64,000 nucleotides of DNA from Bradyrhizobium sp. CSA207 (GTDB lineage: Bacteria; Pseudomonadota; Alphaproteobacteria; Rhizobiales; Xanthobacteraceae), in assembly GCF_029051685.1 (NCBI RefSeq), contig NZ_JAACFT010000011.1, positions 1 through 64,000 on the forward strand, written 5' to 3'. A program made the position numbers and the translations under genes. A model generated the notes under the pieces. The model made no database searches, was not told the origin of the DNA, and was given only the letters and a program-made list of their open reading frames with translations. Shown piece by piece: positions 1 through 6,640 of the stretch; the stretch's first letter is position 1; each line of letters opens with the position of its first letter.

Positions 1-48
1 ATCACCGACCTGCTGCCCTTCAACTTCCCCAAAACCGCCACTGCCTGA
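1..48 (+). pseudogene. C-terminal tail of an IS66-type transposase (TnpC), cut by window edge
   Basis: Fifteen codons open from the window edge to a TGA at 46-48, ending in a leucine-rich motif (ITDLLPFNF) of the kind seen at the C-terminus of IS66 TnpC proteins. The reading is supported by the sequence ending in TTAC at 127, because IS66-family termini read GTAA inward. The rest of the gene lies outside the window, so I cannot tell whether the transposase is intact. The family call rests on 15 residues plus the terminus. Confidence 0.4.
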
Positions 49-104
49 ACAGGCCAGACGCCGCCCCCGATACGAAGGCCATCCGTCAAAAGCGCAGGCG
101 TCAA

Positions 105-127
105 CGTGCGGGGAAAATCGCGCTTAC
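105..127. mobile_element. Right terminus of an IS66-type element
   Basis: The stretch ends ...CGCTTAC at 127, the complement of the GTAAGCG start typical of IS66 inverted repeats. Immediately to the right (128 onward) the minus strand reads as the interior of a reverse-transcriptase gene, so 127/128 looks like the insertion junction. The left terminus and target duplication are outside the window. Confidence 0.45.
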
Positions 128-291
128 CGTCGATCTGGCGTACACCGCCGCCTTTCTTCGGGATGGCGAAGGTCGTGTATTTGCTCCCGGCCGGAAGTTT
201 ATAAAGCAGAAGGACAATCCGCTTGGTTGGTAGCCAAGCAGATGAGCCATGTCGTGAAGCGTTTTTGACCTGTTTAAGAGACTGGAGCGCC
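128..291 (-). pseudogene. 5' fragment of a retron/Abi-like reverse transcriptase, interrupted by the IS66-type element
   Basis: On the minus strand the translation carries a classic N-terminal reverse-transcriptase block (LLYKLPAGSKYTTF followed by IPKKGGGVRQI), the RT0/RT1 region of bacterial RTs. Upstream of it, in a second frame, is MAHLLGYQPSG, which matches what usually precedes that block, so a frameshift lies near position 210. The gene is cut after RQID by the IS66-type end. Only about 55 codons remain, so it is non-functional. Bacterial RTs of this kind often occur in defence islands, but which class this was cannot be judged. Confidence 0.55.
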
Positions 292-456
292 GACAAGGAT
301 TGCACCGGGGGAGGAAAGGCTTACAGGCACTCTTATGCGCCGCATGGATGGTTCGCCATGCATTTCGTCGAGCTCGTCGTCTCGGAGCAGCACCCGGGAC
401 ATGGAATCATATATCGCGAAGCACGATAACAAATCTGCCTGTAAGCCCGCGTGATT

Positions 457-738
457 TTAGAGTGGATGCGGTGAGTCGGGCAACATCGCCTCGAAGATCC
501 GCGCCCAAACACCCTTGATGCTCCATCGACTGAAGCGCCGGAACACGCTGTTCCAATCGCCAAGCAATTCCGGAAGATCACGCCAGGGAGAGCCCGTACG
601 AACGATCCAAAGCACGCCTTCCACGAACATCCGATTTTCGCGCCCGGTCGAGCCTTTCTGGTCAGGCCGACCTATGATCAGCGGTGCCATCCGCTCCCAC
701 GCCACGTCGCTCAAAACCAAACGGTCCATCACACCCAA
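457..738 (-). pseudogene. N-terminal fragment of an IS5-family transposase
   Basis: The 93-residue product has the DUF4096-type N-terminus of IS5-family transposases: WERMAPLI, then an FVEGVLWIVRTGSPWRDLP block and a downstream WARIFEAM motif. It stops being recognisable after FEAM, and the DDE catalytic part is missing from the DNA to its left, so the copy is truncated. It sits between the broken RT gene and the WYL regulator, consistent with repeated IS activity at this edge of the island. Confidence 0.7.
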
Positions 739-835
739 GACTACCTCCCCAAAAGCAGTCTTGAATCTGATTTGCTCCTAAAAAGGAATACCTAGAGTCC
801 ACACTACCTAGCGCTGGATTGGAAGCGGGTGTGGC

Positions 836-1750
836 CTATTGGTTTGCTGGCGAATACTTTCCTGCTGCAAGCCGGCGTTTAGATTCCTCTTTCGCTTGTT
901 GGCTTGCGTGTAGGAATTCCTCGTAGTTCTGAAGAAAGAGCTGCGCGCGAGCCGGCGGAATCTCTCCCTTTCTAAGATCGAGGTTGTTCCGCTTGATGAA
1001 GTAGAATGCGAGCGCCAGACGCATGTCGATGGCAAGCTCACCATCCTTGAAACGATATTCGCGTTCAATTGTCTCCTTTTGTCGATCATCAAGTTCTGGA
1101 TAAGCGATCAAGCGGAGCGAGAACTTTGTCTGCCATTCGACGTCGTCCGCAGGATCAATACTGGTGTGAGTCGGAGCGCTACCGATCGACAGAATTCGAC
1201 CGAGCACGTAATCACGAAACTCCACGCGGTCTAGTGACAGCGCGCGAACGTGCCAGCGATACCCATCATGACCAAGCGCATGCGGGAGGATCGTACGGAC
1301 GCCAGTCCGTGTCAGCGATTGGTAGTTGATGCTAACTGCACTTCCGGCGGAGATGGCGCGAACAACCGCCCTCAATGTGTACGCCTGGGGACCTCGAACG
1401 ATGTCGGGAACTACATCCACGGGCGGCACGCGGTCGAACCACGTATCGCTCTGGCGGATCGAGCTGCTGGTCAAAGCCCGCAGCTGAAGAAGGTAGCGCT
1501 CGGGTGAAAGGTTGAGAAACTTCGGTCGAAAATCCTGGGTTGCAACATAGGTCTTTTCGGTGGCACTGTACTCGATGTTGCGTGGAACCGTCTTTTGATA
1601 CTCGCGAAGGTCAATCGACGCTTGTGGCGTCGAAATGTCGAATTCCAGTTCCAGATCACGTCGGTTGATTCGGCCGTCCCAGTAAGCACGCCATTCGATG
1701 AACTCGAAGCGCTGCGCCAATCCCCATTTGATTTCAGTAGGTTGCGTCAA
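836..1750 (-). CDS. Winged-helix/WYL transcriptional regulator, CapW/BrxR type
   Basis: The 304-residue protein has an N-terminal winged helix (about 10-70, with the sequence DGRINRRDLELEFDIS), a central WYL-like domain (about 125-205, containing GYRWHVRAL) and a C-terminal WCX-like region. This three-part layout and the N-terminal wording match the CapW/BrxR repressors that control CBASS, BREX and other anti-phage operons. The start is a TTG at 1748-1750; a stop codon lies directly upstream in frame, so no longer form is possible. It is divergent from the ubiquitin-like operon, with about 120 bp between. Inference: it represses that operon and perhaps itself, with release on infection or nucleic-acid stress. 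Confidence 0.85.
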   Translation of the reverse strand: MTQPTEIKWGLAQRFEFIEWRAYWDGRINRRDLELEFDISTPQASIDLREYQKTVPRNIEYSATEKTYVATQDFRPKFLNLSPERYLLQLRALTSSSIRQSDTWFDRVPPVDVVPDIVRGPQAYTLRAVVRAISAGSAVSINYQSLTRTGVRTILPHALGHDGYRWHVRALSLDRVEFRDYVLGRILSIGSAPTHTSIDPADDVEWQTKFSLRLIAYPELDDRQKETIEREYRFKDGELAIDMRLALAFYFIKRNNLDLRKGEIPPARAQLFLQNYEEFLHASQQAKEESKRRLAAGKYSPANQ

Positions 1751-1793
1751 TTACGTATACTTTCTTGACCAGTCGTGTTTTCATACTTACATA
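1746..1793 (+). promoter_or_regulatory. Putative promoter and operator between the WYL regulator and the Ubl operon
   Basis: A -35-like TTGACC (1765-1770) and a -10-like TACATA (1788-1793) are 17 bp apart and point at the Ubl gene. The -35 overlaps an inverted repeat GTCAA-N14-TTGAC (1746-1750 and 1765-1769), and ATACTT occurs twice 26 bp apart (1757-1762 and 1783-1788). Overlap with the promoter fits a repressor site for the divergent WYL protein. The elements are seen; the regulator-site pairing is inferred. Confidence 0.45.
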
Positions 1794-1872
1794 GTTTTTA
1801 TACCCTCTTGGATGGGTGTGTCTTGCGAGGGTTAACTTCTTACCGCCGGATTCCGGCAGATTGGAAATCATT

Positions 1873-2139
1873 ATGTCTGATGGCAAGCCTGAAACGCCCG
1901 GCAACGTGTCCGGGCACCACGAACCGAAGGTGACGATTACTGTCGACGATCACCAATACGAAGTGCGGCCTGGCCAGTGGATTGTCCAAGACCTGAAGAC
2001 CGCTGTCGGAGTAGACCCCGCGAAGGCCCTCGCTGAGATCACGCCCCATGGTCTGGTCGACCTCGACGACGCATCCTCAATTGGAGTGCACGAAGGCCAG
2101 CGGTTCATGAGCCATGTCCGTTCTGGGGCTTCCTCCTGA
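1873..2139 (+). CDS. Ubiquitin-like protein with one multi-ubiquitin-type beta-grasp domain
   Basis: From the ATG at 1873 the product is 88 residues. After a polar 15-residue N-terminus, residues about 17-84 have the pattern of the bacterial multi-ubiquitin (Multi_ubiq) beta-grasp family: alternating strand VTITVDD, then GQWIVQDLK, a hydrophobic core and EGQRFM near the end. A GTG at 1816 would add 19 residues, but they look unlike the family. The C-terminus is RSGASS: there is no terminal Gly-Gly. Conjugation would therefore need trimming by the downstream peptidase to the single Gly at residue 85, or another chemistry. The stop overlaps the next start (TGATG), so the two are translationally coupled. 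Confidence 0.75.
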   Translation: MSDGKPETPGNVSGHHEPKVTITVDDHQYEVRPGQWIVQDLKTAVGVDPAKALAEITPHGLVDLDDASSIGVHEGQRFMSHVRSGASS

Positions 2140-2504
2140 TGTCGGCGGTAACCGACGAGCTGGACGCGAGACTTCGCCCGATCGCTGAACTGTGTGAAGG
2201 CGAGGTCTCGTTCCGGAAAGAAGGATGGCGAGAGCTGATCCTCATGAAGGCGCTGCGCCTCGTTGCCTCCGGAGCGCAGCACAAAATTGATGCGATCCTT
2301 TGTCTTAATCACGACAATCCTACCTACCCCACAAAGCTGTACTTGGCGCAGCCGGTTGGCAGCGACCTGAATTGGAATGAGACCGTGTACCTCCTCGATC
2401 GCAGCTGGCACACGTTCTCTTGGAGCAACGTCAGCCCCGATCAGCCTTGGTTTGATATTTTGGCCGCCCATCTGAGGGCGATCGACCGCGGAGGCAAGCC
2501 ATGA
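2139..2504 (+). CDS. Small E2-like (UBC/RWD-fold?) protein of a ubiquitin-like operon
   Basis: A 121-residue soluble protein with no signal peptide or membrane segment. The E2 call comes mainly from position: it lies between a ubiquitin-like protein and a JAMM peptidase/E1 pair, the slot where E2 enzymes sit in bacterial conjugation operons. Internal features are compatible (YPTKLYL strand, then a Trp-rich WHTFSW segment). It has only two cysteines, Cys19 and Cys55, and neither sits after an HPN-like motif, so the usual catalytic cysteine cannot be assigned. It may be a divergent E2, an inactive UEV-like adaptor, or something else. ATGA overlap couples it to the next gene. Confidence 0.5.
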   Translation: MSAVTDELDARLRPIAELCEGEVSFRKEGWRELILMKALRLVASGAQHKIDAILCLNHDNPTYPTKLYLAQPVGSDLNWNETVYLLDRSWHTFSWSNVSPDQPWFDILAAHLRAIDRGGKP

Positions 2505-3034
2505 AGATTCTATTTCGGGCTACTGGAGATTTCATGGCGGCCGTGAGGAGGGATCTCTCGCGTCGTCATCCATTTGCGCACGAACGAGTGGGCTTTATCA
2601 CGGCCCGTGCGGCTCAGGGGCATGATCATCTTGTTGTTCTCGCTGAGGACTATCATCCCGTCGCGGATAACGACTATGTTCCTGATCCCAGCGTGGGCGC
2701 GATGATTGGCCAGGAAGCTCTGCGGAAGGCACTCGAGCTTGCGCTACTGAAACCGGTCGGTGTCTTTCATGTCCACTTGCATGGCCTTCCGGCGGGCAGG
2801 AGGTTGTGGTTCAGCCCCATCGATCTACGCGAGCAGGTCAAGTTTGTCCCCGACTTCTTCAAGGTCCGGCGCAATATGCCGCACGGGGCGATAGTTCTGA
2901 GTCCTTACAGCGCAGCGGGTAGGGTCTGGCTGCGGCCCGACGAAATCGTGAACTTCTCCGAATTCGTTGAAGTTGACGCGCAGGTTTCCATTCGAAAGTC
3001 TTCCCAAGACGGAAGCACGGATTTTTATGCATGA
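2501..3034 (+). CDS. JAMM/JAB metallopeptidase, deubiquitinase-like
   Basis: The 177-residue protein carries the JAMM zinc-site pattern: Glu28 in an ERVGF strand, a histidine cluster HVHLH (His90, His92, His94) and S-x2-D at Ser105/Asp108. The distance from the histidines to the serine is longer than the usual seven residues, so the loop is extended. In bacterial ubiquitin-like operons such enzymes trim the Ubl precursor and remove it from targets; here processing matters because the Ubl lacks a terminal Gly-Gly. The start overlaps the upstream stop and its own stop overlaps the E1 start. Confidence 0.8.
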   Translation: MKILFRATGDFMAAVRRDLSRRHPFAHERVGFITARAAQGHDHLVVLAEDYHPVADNDYVPDPSVGAMIGQEALRKALELALLKPVGVFHVHLHGLPAGRRLWFSPIDLREQVKFVPDFFKVRRNMPHGAIVLSPYSAAGRVWLRPDEIVNFSEFVEVDAQVSIRKSSQDGSTDFYA

Positions 3035-3846
3035 GCAGCAAGGGAGATTTCACGCGGCAGAGTTTTCTTGGTCCGAACTCCGAAAACGTGCTTGCAGATG
3101 TCAGGGTGGCTCTGGTCGGTCTGGGGGGGGGCGGCTCCCAGATTGCACAACAGCTTGCTCATGTGGGAGTCGGCCATTACCGTCTGCTGGACCCTCAAGC
3201 GATTGAAGAAAGTAATCTCAACCGCCTCGTTGGAGCTACTCAAAACGATGTCGACCGTGGAACGGCAAAGGTTGAAATCGTGCAACGCACGATTTTGGGA
3301 ATCCGACCGTGGGCGACCGTCGAAGCTGTTCAGGAAAAGTGGCAGGACGCAACCTATCTGCTGAGGGATGCGCACGTCATGTTCGGTTGTGTGGATGGAT
3401 TTCAGCAGAGGGAAGCACTCGAACGTGCGGCCCGTCGCTTCTGTATTCCCTACATCGATATAGGAATGGACGTGATTGAAGTCGCGCAAGGGAATTTTGC
3501 AATCTCCGGACAGATGATCATGACGCGGCCTGGCCGTCCATGTCTGCGTTGCCTTGGCTTTCTGAATTCGCAGAATCTCAGCCAGGAGGAAAACCGTTAC
3601 GGCGATGCAGGAATAAATCCACAAGTCGTTTGGACCAACGGGACTCTGGCGTCACTCGCGGTTGGGGCATTTATCAGGCTGATTGCCCCATGGTCGAACT
3701 TTAAAGATGACTTCACCTGGCTAGAGCTAGATGGAAACAACCAGACGGTGACGCCTAGCCCGCGGCCAGCTTATGAGCCCATTCCCGGCTTATGCCCCCA
3801 TCACGGTGGGCCGGACGGCGTGGGCGATCCGTTTTTTTCATTGTAA
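3031..3846 (+). CDS. ThiF/MoeB-type E1-like adenylyltransferase
   Basis: The 271-residue protein is a single ThiF-fold E1. It shows the nucleotide loop GLGGGG (30-35), acidic Asp54 closing the second strand, NLNR (62-65), catalytic Lys80, a GCVDG metal/adenylate loop (Asp122) and zinc ligands CLRC (Cys171, Cys174) with CPHH near the C-terminus (Cys255, His257/258). It should adenylate the C-terminus of the Ubl at 1873. It lacks the large extra domains of eukaryotic E1s and is short even for bacterial E1s of this kind. It is the last gene of the coupled operon; its 3' end overlaps an opposing gene by 46 bp. Confidence 0.85.
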   Translation: MSSKGDFTRQSFLGPNSENVLADVRVALVGLGGGGSQIAQQLAHVGVGHYRLLDPQAIEESNLNRLVGATQNDVDRGTAKVEIVQRTILGIRPWATVEAVQEKWQDATYLLRDAHVMFGCVDGFQQREALERAARRFCIPYIDIGMDVIEVAQGNFAISGQMIMTRPGRPCLRCLGFLNSQNLSQEENRYGDAGINPQVVWTNGTLASLAVGAFIRLIAPWSNFKDDFTWLELDGNNQTVTPSPRPAYEPIPGLCPHHGGPDGVGDPFFSL

Positions 3847-4325
3847 GCTTCCGACTGAAAGGGCGACGGCAGCGGTGCTGCTTGGCTGATGGCGGCGGAG
3901 ACCCACTCGATGTCCGCGGGCTCTTCCTGAATTTTTAGATGCTTTCGAACTCCGGTCACGAACGCGGCGGGATCCGGCGCGACCAGCTGCTTAAGTTTCA
4001 GCGTTTCGGCCTGAGGGTCTAGAGCTGCCCTTGCGTCCCCTTGAATGATGGCGGTCACGATGGCCGCCCAGGGAGTCGTTCCCGTTCGGATGCGCGAGCA
4101 GGCTATTGCCACCTTTTCGCCAGGCGCTCGAGTGCTCGCTGCGGCTTTGATGCGCTCCATCATGCTTTCCACCGAGGACCTCGAATAGGCCACCTTCTCC
4201 TGCAACATCTGCATGGGGTCCTCCATGCGAGCAACCAAGCGGTCGCTGTTTCTGGGTGCGAAACTGGTGCGGTCACGCCTGCTCGTTGCAGACGAGTCGG
4301 GATGGACTTCTATACCCGTAGTCAC
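3801..4325 (-). CDS. Hypothetical protein convergent with the E1 gene
   Basis: A 174-residue reading frame on the minus strand fills the gap between the E1 and integrase genes and overlaps the E1 3' end by 46 bp. It has no membrane segment. The N-terminal half is rich in Arg/Ser/Glu with a likely helical stretch (residues 35-60), and internal methionines at about residues 34 and 38 are alternative starts. I do not recognise a family. The length of the open frame and the absence of a competing frame support a real gene; the function is unknown. Confidence 0.45.
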   Translation of the reverse strand: MTTGIEVHPDSSATSRRDRTSFAPRNSDRLVARMEDPMQMLQEKVAYSRSSVESMMERIKAAASTRAPGEKVAIACSRIRTGTTPWAAIVTAIIQGDARAALDPQAETLKLKQLVAPDPAAFVTGVRKHLKIQEEPADIEWVSAAISQAAPLPSPFQSEAYNEKNGSPTPSGPP

Positions 4326-4384
4326 CGCGCGAACCGTAGGTTTTGGCCGTGGGTTCGGAGGACGGATTTTGCGAGGGAGGACAC

Positions 4385-5608
4385 ATGCCTGGCAAGCTCA
4401 AGCCACTCGATGTCGAACGTGAAATTCGGCCGGGCAAATACCCTGACGGCGACGGTCTCTACCTGATCGTCGCGAGCGTCACGTCGAAGAATTGGAACTA
4501 TCGGTACTGGAAGGACGGAAAGCAACGGTGGCTCGGTCTAGGGTCGGTCAAGGACGTATCACTGAAAGATGCGCGCCTAGCTCGGGATGCGGCGCGGCTC
4601 CGAGTGAAGGGGGATCGCGGCACACCCGGCGTCGACATCGTGCAAGAGAAGCGAGCGGCGCGCGAGGAAGCGAAAGCCATAGAGATCAAGGTCACTCTGC
4701 CCACCTTCGAGCAGTGCGCCGAAATCTACATTCGGGAGCGCTGGCCAAACTGGAGCAAGAAGCATCGCGCCCAATGGCCGTCTTCGCTCAAACGCTACGC
4801 TTACGCGACGATTGGAAAACTCACCATCCCGGAGATCAAGCCCAGCCACATCTATGAATTGCTCCGGCCAATCTGGGTTGAGAAGCGAGAGACAGCTAAT
4901 CGTGTGCGCGGACGGATCGAAACGATCATTGCGAAGAATGTCGATGTTGACGACCGCGATTTTCGGAATCCTGCTGAACTCACCAAACAATTGCGCGAGA
5001 AGCTTCCAAGGCGGCCGAAACGCGTCGTTCAGCATCATCCCGCGCTGCCCTACGCCGAAGCACCGCAGTTCTTGATTGACCTGTCCGCAGCAAGCGGCAT
5101 CGCGGCTTTGATGCTTCGCTTTCTGATCTTCACGGCGTGCCGCACCAACGAAGTCGTAGACGCCCGCTGGTCCGAGATCGATCGACCATCATCGATTTGG
5201 AAGATCCCCGGCGATCGCATGAAGATGAACCAGGATCATGTCGTACCACTTTCGGAACCTGCACTCGCGATCCTCGACAAGATACGCGATGGTAGCCAGG
5301 GCGAACTGGTCTTCGCGAACCCTGACGGTGGAATGTTCTCAGAGAATGCGATGCTGGCCGTACTGGATCGCCTCGGATACAGTCACGTCACGGTGCACGG
5401 CTTCCGCTCGACGTTTGCAACATGGGCAGAGGAGTGCACGGACTATCCCGACGGCGTCCGCGAGGCAGCGCTGGCGCACAAGTACAAATCCGAGACTACA
5501 GCAGCCTATCAGCGCGGGCAAAAGCTCGAGAAGCGACGGGTCCTCATGAACGACTGGGCGCAGTTCCTTGCAGGATCAAACATCATCCACTTTGGCGAAA
5601 AGGGTTGA
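4385..5608 (+). CDS. int: Tyrosine recombinase, P4-type integrase
   Basis: The 407-residue protein has the DUF4102-type N-terminal arm-binding domain (1-95), a SAM-like core-binding domain (about 105-210) and a C-terminal catalytic domain with Arg253, His338-x2-Arg341, His365 and Tyr375 in the expected order. All catalytic residues are present, so it is likely active. The ATG at 4385 is preceded by GGGAGG at 4373-4378, which favours it over an in-frame start at 4343. It lies 0.53 kb from a tRNA-Arg 3' fragment, the typical target of this family, and should catalyse integration and excision of the element. Confidence 0.9.
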   Translation: MPGKLKPLDVEREIRPGKYPDGDGLYLIVASVTSKNWNYRYWKDGKQRWLGLGSVKDVSLKDARLARDAARLRVKGDRGTPGVDIVQEKRAAREEAKAIEIKVTLPTFEQCAEIYIRERWPNWSKKHRAQWPSSLKRYAYATIGKLTIPEIKPSHIYELLRPIWVEKRETANRVRGRIETIIAKNVDVDDRDFRNPAELTKQLREKLPRRPKRVVQHHPALPYAEAPQFLIDLSAASGIAALMLRFLIFTACRTNEVVDARWSEIDRPSSIWKIPGDRMKMNQDHVVPLSEPALAILDKIRDGSQGELVFANPDGGMFSENAMLAVLDRLGYSHVTVHGFRSTFATWAEECTDYPDGVREAALAHKYKSETTAAYQRGQKLEKRRVLMNDWAQFLAGSNIIHFGEKG

Positions 5609-5759
5609 TCGATCTTGGACAGGCCAATTCTTGGGGCGTTTGATACACTCTCTAGACCGGGCAAAACACGAAATCGCACGACCTGACATCCGAAAATGCG
5701 CATGGTCCCCTGAGTGCCTTGCGCCGAAAACCCGGTCTGGCACGCTGCGAAACGTCAGG

Positions 5760-6023
5760 GAACAACAGGATGGTTCGTATGTCTCGCGCCATGTCCATCG
5801 CGGTAGAATCCCCGCTCGTAGCGTCGCCGAATCAGGCGATGAGGGCGATCCAGGTCTCGCTAAAAAGCTGTACGAACTTATCAACACGGGCGAGTTGGAG
5901 AGTTATACTGAAGGCAAGTCGCGACGCATCACGGTCAAATCGATCAATGACTACATCGAGCGCCGATTGGTAGCAGAAGCGGTTCGGCGCGGCTGCGCTG
6001 CATCCCCTCGAAACAACCAATAA
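5760..6023 (+). CDS. Excisionase-like helix-turn-helix protein (start uncertain)
   Basis: The C-terminal part reads KKLYELINTGELESYTEGK followed by SRRITVKSINDYIERRL, the winged MerR-like HTH_17 pattern of phage and island excisionases. The region upstream of KKLYEL lacks a clear ATG in this frame and the usual family sequence is only loosely recognisable, so the start is undefined and a frameshift near 5840 is possible. Its place between integrase and attachment site supports a role in excision directionality. Confidence 0.5.
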   Translation, partial: EQQDGSYVSRHVHRGRIPARSVAESGDEGDPGLAKKLYELINTGELESYTEGKSRRITVKSINDYIERRLVAEAVRRGCAASPRNNQ

Positions 6024-6141
6024 TGTCCTGAGTGCCACGCCCGGTTCGGCGGCTGCGAGCCGTTCGGCCAGCGTATCGGACGGGCCGACCTCCGACAATT
6101 CACGATGGGCCCAGCTGCAGACGAGCAAACGTGGCCCGGGT

Positions 6142-6189
6142 AGACTACGAATCTGAGGGGCGGACGTTCGAATCGTTCCGGGCGCGCCA
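6142..6189 (+). other. 3' fragment of tRNA-Arg(ACG): attachment-site scar (att)
   Basis: The stretch contains an anticodon loop CTACGAA (6145-6151, anticodon ACG), most of the 3' anticodon strand, a perfect T-arm (GGACG, loop TTCGAAT, CGTTC; 6162-6178), an acceptor 3' strand CGGGCGC and an encoded CCA (6187-6189). Pairing fails just upstream of 6142 and no D-arm or 5' acceptor strand follows, so this is only the 3' half. Such duplicated tRNA 3' ends mark the distal boundary of tRNA-integrated elements. The intact gene should lie left of this window, with non-element DNA to the right. Confidence 0.8.
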
Positions 6190-6499
6190 TCATCTCGCGA
6201 AGTCCTTGTTTCTCGGGAATAAATCGACAAATCAATAGCTTCGTCCTGCCGCACTGGTATCAAGCGGTGGGATCAATGGTGCGTATCGTGGGACTTGGTC
6301 TGATACAAAACGAGCATGGCGTTTGGTGTGTGCGCCGGAACGCTCAACGTTTGCCGGCGTGTTCGATGGCCGTTTGTATCTGCCCACCGCGAAGCCACCG
6401 AACAAGAGAAGTTTCGATACTCGCTCAGGACGGCGAACGCTGTAGACGATCGAGACGGCGCATCCTTGAGAGAACCTTGCCACAAGCGCGGCGACAGGC

Positions 6500-6640
6500 G
6501 CCGGTTCGCGATTACTCTCGTCCGTGATGATCGCGGCAAGCTGCGCGAGACCTTCCCGTCCCGTCTCCGCAACGAGGCCGAACTCGGCAAGGTGGGCTCG
6601 GAGCGCATTGATCAGCTGCGTGCGCTGCGCGCGAACACGG
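6500..6640 (-). pseudogene. IS110-family transposase fragment
   Basis: On the minus strand about 40 residues match the middle of IS110/IS1111 transposases: RTQLINALRAHLAEFGL, then ETGREGLAQLAAII. Flanking sequence in all frames is not transposase-like, so only a short remnant remains. It lies just outside the att scar. Confidence 0.5.

What the first reader, a model, noticed from the sequence alone, without database searches (positions are those of the whole stretch)
836..3846. Compact ubiquitin-like conjugation operon (Ubl, E2-like, JAMM, E1) under a divergent CapW-type repressor in an integrated element
Seen: four genes in one unit with TGATG/ATGA overlaps, in the order Ubl, unknown, JAMM peptidase, E1; a CapW/BrxR-like WYL protein reads away from it; int, xis and a tRNA scar follow. 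Known: the same order occurs in bilABCD anti-phage operons, and CapW/BrxR proteins repress CBASS and BREX. Inference: a mobile defence module with a single-domain Ubl of 88 aa, a very short E1 (271 aa) and an unusual E2-like protein, i.e. a reduced variant different from canonical Bil.
Basis: partly seen in the sequence, partly recalled or inferred. Interest (0 to 1): 0.85.

Follow-up and report, generated by a model that had tools for sequence, protein, structure and literature searches.

The report
CapW-controlled, cysteine-free ubiquitin-like conjugation operon

Summary
Window 836-3846 carries a CapW-type gene divergent from four overlapping genes: 88-aa Ubl, 121-aa E2-like protein, JAMM peptidase, 271-aa E1. 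Integrase, xis and a 49-bp tRNA-Arg scar follow. Of 80 distinct loci gathered by E1 (window included), 74 show all four genes in this order. The E2-like model (pLDDT 93) matches Citrobacter BubB best, the Ubl model bacterial multi-ubiquitin proteins, the E1 BubCD. It is not Bil: no E2 cysteine, one adenylation domain, no E1 cysteine domain. Nor canonical Bub: DUF6527 was in 6 of 6 Bub-type loci examined, 0 of 80 here, and this E2 family has no Pfam match. Shared features: an E2 serine invariant in 78 of 78, aligned with a Bub-E2 serine; no conserved catalytic cysteine; a Ubl tail mostly ending G-x-S-S. Single Ubls and one-domain E1s are ordinary here. CapW was found in one clade only (5 of 80, plus a phage contig). 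A same-genus genome has the element's integrase end at 99% identity without the operon at that place. Best reading: CapW-repressed, serine-using, Bub-like conjugation cargo, probably stress- or phage-triggered. Serine chemistry and defence are inferred. New variant of a known kind.

The parts
836..1750 (-). CapW/BrxR-type WYL gene, 304 aa as listed (TTG start)
   Evidence: WYL PF13280 E 5e-9; PDB CapW 9c5g 294 bits, BrxR 106 bits; a like gene divergent in L024, L025, L026, L086 and L104
1765..1793 (+). sigma70-like promoter TTGACC-17 bp-TACATA
   Evidence: same layout (17 bp in five, 16 in L104) read by eye in 6 of 6 CapW-linked intergenic regions printed; no chance control was run
1767..1774 (+). 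GACCAGTC, candidate CapW operator overlapping the -35
   Evidence: GACNNGTC at this place in 4 of 6 CapW loci (not L025, L026), by eye; function inferred
1873..2139 (+). single-domain Ubl, 88 aa, C-terminus SGASS
   Evidence: beta-grasp model pLDDT 82.3, pTM 0.60; bacterial multi-ubiquitin proteins best, Z 10.3-8.8, BubA Z 8.0; homologues
2139..2504 (+). E2-like protein, 121 aa, invariant Ser94, no conserved Cys
   Evidence: model pLDDT 93.4; BubB best match, Foldseek prob 1.00, E 2.4e-3, Z 9.3; conservation in 78 sequences
2501..3034 (+). JAMM/JAB metallopeptidase, 177 aa (E28, H90, H92, S105, D108)
   Evidence: motif residues in 77-78 of 78; hhalign to the JAB part of a Bub-type JAB-E1, prob 95
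3031..3846 (+). E1-like adenylating enzyme, 271 aa, one ThiF domain with CxxC...CxH
   Evidence: ThiF PF00899 E 7.6e-31; best PDB match Citrobacter BubCD; R65, K80, D122 in 78 of 78
3801..4325 (-). 174-aa ORF, shortened copy of a 212-aa gene of the carrier element; marks the cargo joint near 3892
   Evidence: 97% identity of residues 1-145 to L134:9311-9949, there 212 aa
4343..5608 (+). tyrosine integrase of the element
   Evidence: PF00589, PF22022, PF13356; phrog_1 integrase; 98.8% to a same-genus genome
5568..6023 (+). excisionase-like HTH gene
   Evidence: HTH_17 E 3e-7, over its cut-off; TIGR01764 E 2e-4, under its cut-off
6142..6190 (+). attachment-site scar: 3' half of tRNA-Arg(ACG)
   Evidence: 48 of 49 bases identical to the tRNA-Arg at G000:C76 33850-33926
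457..738 (-). IS4/5-type transposase fragment left of the operon
   Evidence: PF13340 E 1.6e-24

Best explanation
A CapW-repressed protein-conjugation operon of the Bub-like class, carried as swappable cargo by an integrative element at tRNA-Arg. The E1 adenylates the Ubl tail; the E2-fold protein takes it up on its invariant Ser94 (an ester rather than a cysteine thioester) and passes it to target proteins; the JAMM protein trims the Ubl (x-S-S after Gly85, or a longer extension or fusion in relatives) and/or removes it from targets. CapW keeps the operon off until single-stranded DNA from phage infection or DNA damage lifts repression. Shown here: gene content, order and co-conservation, predicted folds of Ubl and E2, conserved adenylation, zinc-type and JAMM residues, the invariant serine, absence of a conserved catalytic cysteine, CapW homology, element and scar. 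Inferred: serine ester chemistry, the cleavage point, targets, ssDNA induction of this CapW, and a defence role.
For: Co-conservation 74 of 80 although loci were chosen by E1 only. E2 model best match BubB (Z 9.3 against 6.3 for the next entry). hhalign of the E2 family (74 rows) to six Bub-type E2s: prob 86 (global) and 90 (local), placing Ser94 on the serine of their S-[RW]-H motif, present in 6 of 6, with a one-residue gap just before it. S94 in 78 of 78; the richest Cys column of the E2 holds Cys in 39 of 78, and 12 of 78 have none in the matched region. E1: R65, K80, D122 78 of 78; C171, C174, C255 (77 of 78) with H257 read as a zinc site. Ubl ends exactly G-x-S-S in 64 of 77, has 1-3 residues after it in 5 of 77, and is fused to the E2 right after GGSS in L097. 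CapW homology; like promoter layout in 6 of 6 (by eye). A phage contig carries CapW and the operon between portal and terminase genes. Same-genus element without the operon at that place. Patchy spread: JAB of this type in 11 of 146 same-genus genomes, own included. CapW/BrxR represses until it binds ssDNA, and 219 of 544 Bub operons are linked to CapW or CapH+CapP (PMC13373217, passages).
Against: No activity, target or phage phenotype is known. Iyer et al. 2006 read the cysteine-less E2-like domain of type 6e operons as probably inactive (PMC1779556). CapW stands next to only 5 of 80 loci. DUF6527, constant in the Bub-type loci examined, is absent. No Foldseek match of either model reached E 0.001, and comparison of the E2 family with single Bub E2s was weak (prob 0.7 and 66). 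For the single E1 sequence the lead of BubCD (56 bits) over MoeB (49) is small. That Bub uses oxyesters is recalled from the abstract of Ye et al. 2026, which I could not open. The place of Ser94 relative to a UBC active site was not seen in coordinates. The branch parting this family from Bub has support 89, unstarred, in a quick tree with long outgroup branches.
Confidence: 0.6

Rival explanations
1. The E2-fold protein is a dead scaffold (RWD/UEV-like). The E1 alone charges or transfers the Ubl, or the Ubl acts by non-covalent binding, and the JAMM only matures it.
For: No conserved cysteine; UEV domains, inactive E2s, are the next-best folds after BubB; Iyer 2006 judged the related domain probably inactive.
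Against: Ser94, Trp79, Trp90 and Leu112 are invariant in 78 of 78 across many phyla, more than a scaffold should need; Ser94 aligns with a serine conserved in Bub E2s.
Confidence: 0.2
2. Conjugation machinery as in the best reading, but serving stress response, element maintenance or competition rather than phage defence (overlaps with the best reading except for the role).
For: The EMBO J paper states that Bub has not been shown to protect against phage and may serve wider stress responses (PMC13373217, passage).
Against: Cargo position in an integrative element and in a phage contig, plasmid copies of the family and patchy spread are typical of defence cargo, though no proof.
Confidence: 0.3
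3. A reduced Bil (bilABCD) system.
For: Ubl, E2, JAB, E1 components in the bilABCD order.
Against: No E2 CEHH cysteine, one adenylation domain and no Cys domain in the E1 (against PMC11354881 passages); the nearest solved relatives of E1 and E2 are Bub proteins.
Confidence: 0.03
4. A sulfur-carrier or cofactor pathway (ThiS/MoaD-like) with E1 and JAB.
For: ThiF/MoeB-type E1 with a zinc-type site; JAB also occurs in sulfur-transfer operons (PMC1779556).
Against: No rhodanese, SirA or cofactor gene in the operon; an E2-fold partner in 78 of 80 loci; Ubl tail mostly G-x-S-S.
Confidence: 0.05

Closest known systems
Bub (bacterial ubiquitination-like) operons, e.g. Citrobacter; by my reading the same as type 6e of Iyer et al. 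2006
   Same: Ubl of one to three beta-grasp domains, E2 fold without catalytic cysteine, JAB and single-domain E1, immune-type regulators next door in some; BubCD and BubB are the best solved matches of E1 and E2, and BubA is among those of the Ubl
   Different: No DUF6527 gene (0 of 80); own E2 family without Pfam match (Bub E2 is PF14462); JAB and E1 mostly separate (6 of 80 fused); Ubl tail mostly G-x-S-S; Ubl-E2 fusion in 1 of 80
Bil (bilABCD)
   Same: Component types and order
   Different: Bil E2 has a CEHH cysteine and BilD has IAD + AAD + Cys domain (PMC11354881, passages); neither is here
CapW/BrxR-controlled immune operons (CBASS, BREX)
   Same: CapW homologue divergent from the operon promoter
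   Different: The cargo is a Ubl pathway; ssDNA response of this CapW untested
E1-E2 fusion systems (type II CBASS Cap2, 6A-MBL; Iyer types 6a, 6b)
   Same: Bacterial E1 + E2 fold + JAB; a Cap2 chain appears in the fold list (Z 5.9)
   Different: There E1 and E2 are one protein and the E2 has a conserved cysteine (PMC1779556); no nucleotidyltransferase or MBL gene in this operon

Membership tests
Bil | E2 (BilB) with catalytic Cys in a CEHH motif | tested here: not met
   no Cys column above 39 of 78; S94 invariant; feature from PMC11354881 passage
Bil | E1 (BilD) with inactive + active adenylation domain and a Cys domain | tested here: not met
   271 aa, one ThiF domain; no column between 176 and 254 with Cys in more than 11 of 78
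Bil | gene order Ubl-E2-JAB-E1 | tested here: met
Bub / Iyer type 6e | Ubl(s) related to the multi-ubiquitin proteins | tested here: met
   fold Z 8-10, talin F0 at 8.3 and ubiquitins at 7.2-7.8 close behind; three-domain relatives hit PF14452; the window Ubl itself has no Pfam hit over cut-off
Bub / Iyer type 6e | E2 fold lacking the catalytic cysteine | tested here: met
   BubB best match
Bub / Iyer type 6e | E2 of family PF14462 (Prok-E2_E), as in 3 of 3 Bub-type E2s scanned (L105, L108, L002) | tested here: not met
   no hit at E <= 1 for the window E2 or three relatives; Bub E2s hit
Bub / Iyer type 6e | DUF6527 gene (my match for the metal-binding Y protein of type 6e) | tested here: not met
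   0 of 80 loci, in the flanks held (short in some), against 6 of 6 Bub-type loci, two of which built the model
Bub / Iyer type 6e | E1 closest to BubCD among solved structures | tested here: met
   top PDB hit (56 bits against 49 for MoeB; 81 against 65)
Bub / Iyer type 6e | oxyester (serine) intermediates | not testable with these tools
   only the serine's conservation and alignment; chemistry recalled from Ye et al. 2026, not held
CapW/BrxR | full-length sequence homology to solved CapW proteins | tested here: met
   query 8-296 aligned to 9c5g, E 9.6e-87
CapW/BrxR | ssDNA-relieved repression of the adjacent operon | not testable with these tools
   promoter layout only

The most novel reading that the evidence does not exclude
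A third family of bacterial ubiquitin-like conjugation, beside Bil and Bub, that works without any catalytic cysteine: one adenylating E1 without a Cys domain, its own E2 family using an invariant serine, and a Ubl whose active tail is G-x-Ser-Ser rather than Gly-Gly, kept silent by a DNA-damage-sensing CapW in one mobile clade seen on an integrative element and inside a phage genome.
Probability: 0.35. Interest if true: 0.78.

Novelty: new variant of a known kind. Interest (0 to 1): 0.52.

Why it matters
It separates a widespread four-gene Ubl family (74 full operons among 80 distinct E1 loci, many phyla) from both Bil and canonical Bub, names testable residues (E2 Ser94, Ubl Gly85-x-Ser-Ser, E1 D122) and offers a compact single-Ubl version that could be rebuilt in vitro. 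If the serine relay is real, ester-based Ubl transfer reaches beyond Bub, and CapW ties it to DNA damage in a mobile setting. The host also carries a canonical Bub operon (L002), so the two could be compared in one cell.

Tried and rejected
Bil membership: rejected on tested residues. 'Reduced' Ubl and E1: rejected, both ordinary in the family. Pfam, PADLOC and NCBIfam name none of the window's Ubl, E2-like or JAMM proteins over a cut-off (weak Pfam rows Fer2_4 E 0.02 and CofB E 0.11 taken as chance). A scan of genome contigs with the E2-like protein alone found no relative; the E1 alignment did. Sequence profiles of the E2 family against the PDB gave nothing credible, nor did the C-terminal Ubl domain (its best rows were unrelated); only fold comparison did. 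hhalign of the E2 family to single Bub E2s was weak. No match of the E1 in 50,697 phage records. Palindrome search gave no operator common to all six promoters. Ubl domain numbers were assigned by protein length only. On the quick tree the one/two/three-domain state needs at least 14 changes, but few are forced by starred branches, so gain and loss are not settled; the careful tree was not run. The remark that this four-gene type seems unnamed rests on paper searches and 141 of an open-licence library; four key Bub/Bil/CapW papers are not held, so it may already be among their 544 Bub operons. Whether neighbours of the 80 loci are enriched in defence genes was not tested; only flanks of L024 and L025 were scanned (L025 lies among metabolic genes on one side). 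I first called the CapW clade plasmid-borne in a draft; the calls do not show that, and it is removed.
Full report
WHAT IS THERE. The window is positions 1-64000 of contig C22 of an 8.44-Mb genome in 151 contigs. From the left end: a fragment of an IS4/5-type transposase (457-738, -), a CapW-type gene (836-1750, -), then four overlapping genes on the + strand: Ubl 1873-2139, E2-like 2139-2504, JAMM 2501-3034, E1 3031-3846. After them come a 174-aa ORF on the other strand (3801-4325), an integrase (4343-5608), an xis-like gene (5568-6023) and a scar (6142-6190) that equals the 3' half of the genome's tRNA-Arg(ACG) at 48 of 49 bases. G+C in 1-kb steps is 0.54-0.59 over 1-6500 and 0.60-0.67 from there to 14 kb.

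IS IT MORE THAN CHANCE. I searched one genome for each of 84,980 species with an E1 alignment only (143 confirmed, best 80 kept). Adding six operons from unnamed same-family genomes and the window gives 87 loci; seven duplicates were dropped, leaving 80. All four genes, in the order Ubl, E2-like, JAB, E1, are found in 74 of 80. The other six are L030, L032 and L086 (cut by contig ends) and L056, L065 and L080 (possibly real gaps; the E1 of L065 is in two pieces). By record titles and the tree's labels the organisms span Pseudomonadota, Acidobacteriota, Bacteroidota, Planctomycetota, Verrucomicrobiota, Melainabacteria and others. JAB and E1 are one protein in 6 of 80, and Ubl and E2 are one protein in L097.

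THE E2-LIKE PROTEIN. It has no Pfam match over cut-off and no PADLOC or NCBIfam match. AlphaFold2 on an alignment of 74 sequences gives pLDDT 93.4. The best solved match is Citrobacter BubB (Foldseek probability 1.00, E 2.4e-3; VIA Z 9.3, rmsd 4.0 over 111 residues, 14% identity), ahead of UEV and E2 domains at Z 6.3 and below. Over 78 sequences Trp79, Trp90, Ser94 and Leu112 are invariant; no cysteine column exceeds 39 of 78, and 12 have no cysteine in the matched region. Profile alignment with six Bub-type E2s (L105, L106, L108, L002, L022, L023; probability 86 global, 90 local) puts Ser94 on the serine of their S-[RW]-H motif, present in 6 of 6, with a one-residue gap just before it; against single Bub E2s the comparison was weak. 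The family profile hits none of six Bub-type loci at E <= 1, whereas the three Bub-type E2s scanned belong to PF14462: a sister family.

THE UBL. The model has a beta-grasp fold (pLDDT 82.3, pTM 0.60, tail disordered). Best matches are bacterial multi-ubiquitin proteins (Z 10.3 to 8.8) and BubA (Z 8.0); a talin domain scores 8.3 and many ubiquitins 7.2-7.8, so the margin is small. By length, 22 of 77 relatives (L104 included) have one domain, 7 two and 48 three. The tail is the striking part: 64 of 77 end exactly in G-x-S-S, 5 of 77 carry 1-3 further residues, and L097 runs from GGSS straight into the E2. The other seven end GGAS (three), GNSA, GQSA, GGAA and SSAS. So some members seem to need a peptidase, and the mature end is either the glycine at -4 or the serines; I cannot tell which.

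THE JAMM AND E1. JAMM: Glu28, His90, His92, Ser105, Asp108 hold in 77-78 of 78. E1: Arg65, Lys80 and Asp122 hold in 78 of 78, and the same residues stand in the genome's own MoeB/ThiF-type protein. Cys171, Cys174, Cys255 and His257 hold in 77 of 78, a likely zinc site. The next cysteine column (114) has Cys in 69 of 78 but Ala in the window, and between 176 and 254 no column has Cys in more than 11 of 78, so no thioester cysteine is evident. The closest solved E1 is BubCD (56 bits against 49 for MoeB with the single sequence, 81 against 65 for the next with the profile).

BUB AS A YARDSTICK. Bub-type loci were taken from plasmids (L105-L108, four of the listed hits) and from same-genus genomes (L022, L023). 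DUF6527 is found in 6 of 6 (two built the model; L107 shows only JAB-E1 and DUF6527 beside IS21 genes) and in 0 of 80 loci of the window type, in the flanks held. The window's own genome holds a second, canonical Bub operon (L002: Multi_ubiq, Prok-E2_E, JAB-E1, DUF6527). In the E1 tree the window type is one side of a branch (support 89, unstarred), with long outgroup branches mixed among Bub rows.

CAPW. The repressor's best PDB match is CapW 9c5g (294 bits), then 7tb5, S. maltophilia CapW, and BrxR. A gene like it stands divergent beside 5 of 80 loci (window, L024, L025, L026, L086; flanks are at most about 6 kb for most loci and some contigs are short, so a lower bound) and beside the viral contig L104's operon. 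In the E1 tree the five with enough E1 form one clade with support 100; L086 has too little E1 to place. All six intergenic regions show TTGAC- or TTTAC-type -35 and TATA-like -10 boxes 16-17 bp apart, with GACNNGTC over the -35 in four (read by eye, no chance control). According to PMC13373217 (passages) CapW/BrxR represses until it binds ssDNA, 219 of 544 Bub operons are linked to CapW or CapH+CapP, and CapK+CapS is another common partner.

MOBILITY. One same-genus genome (G359) matches window 3892-6498 at 99% (integrase 98.8%, xis 99.3%), with the scar and flank, but has no hit to any operon protein in the 15 kb fetched, which ends with the contig 5.3 kb past the joint. There the neighbour gene is 212 aa; in the window it is cut at about residue 145, so the operon replaced or interrupted that part. 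L104 (IMG/VR) carries CapW, a single Ubl, the E2-like protein and a fused JAB-E1 between a phage portal gene and a terminase gene. Ten of 72,556 plasmid records match the E1 over 80% or more of its length, at 44-49% identity; 0 of 50,697 phage records match it. A JAB of this type is in 11 of 146 same-genus genomes, own included; in G361 it is in two pieces and in G367 it holds a stop, so some copies may be decaying.

HOW IT MOST LIKELY WORKS. Adenylation of the Ubl tail by E1; transfer to Ser94 of the E2-like protein; transfer to targets; trimming and removal by JAMM; silence under CapW until ssDNA appears. The chemistry of E1 and JAMM follows from conserved residues of established families (ThiF/MoeB; JAMM). 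The serine step rests on conservation and on the recalled abstract of Ye et al. 2026 (Bub uses oxyesters; paper not held). The opposite view, an inactive E2 fold, was printed for type 6e in 2006 (PMC1779556: parts 4 and 5 of the main section and table passages seen).

NOVELTY. Known kind (Bub, type 6e), distinct variant: separate E2 family, no DUF6527, serine tail, mostly unfused genes, and one CapW-bearing mobile clade with single Ubls. Iyer et al. already list one to three Ubl repeats and a separate E2-like gene for type 6e, so those traits are not new. I found no paper describing this exact set in the searches named in Tried and rejected, but could not read the main Bub papers.

Noticed in passing
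G000:C74, locus L002 986-3635: A second, canonical Bub operon in the same genome: Ubl protein (149 aa, long charged N-terminus), Prok-E2_E (128 aa), JAB-E1 (499 aa), DUF6527 (141 aa).
   Followed up: yes
L104 501-8608: Phage contig with a CapW + Ubl + E2-like + fused JAB-E1 cassette placed between portal and terminase genes, an unusual spot for cargo.
   Followed up: partly
L097 4496-5458: Natural fusion of a long Ubl protein with the E2-like protein, GGSS at the joint: a ready-made test substrate for the JAMM peptidase.
   Followed up: partly
L108 4683-6287: A Bub-type operon on a Bradyrhizobium plasmid with a gene annotated phosphotransferase between JAB-E1 and DUF6527.
   Followed up: no
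G000:C76 33850-54235: Intact tRNA-Arg(ACG) followed by a 49-bp copy of its 3' half 10.5 kb on and a 23-bp copy 9.8 kb further: apparently a repeatedly used integration site.
   Followed up: partly
L025 6952-11735: Next to a close CapW-linked copy: calcineurin-like phosphoesterase + 1180-aa AAA_27/SMC-like ATPase, a nuclease-like pair.
   Followed up: no
L004 (G000:C84) 558-2775: By eye an E2-E1 fusion (581 aa) with an adjoining JAB-like gene elsewhere in the same genome: another E1/E2-type system.
   Followed up: no
G367:C110 and G361:C206: JAB genes with an internal stop or in two pieces in same-genus genomes, possible decay of the system.
   Followed up: no
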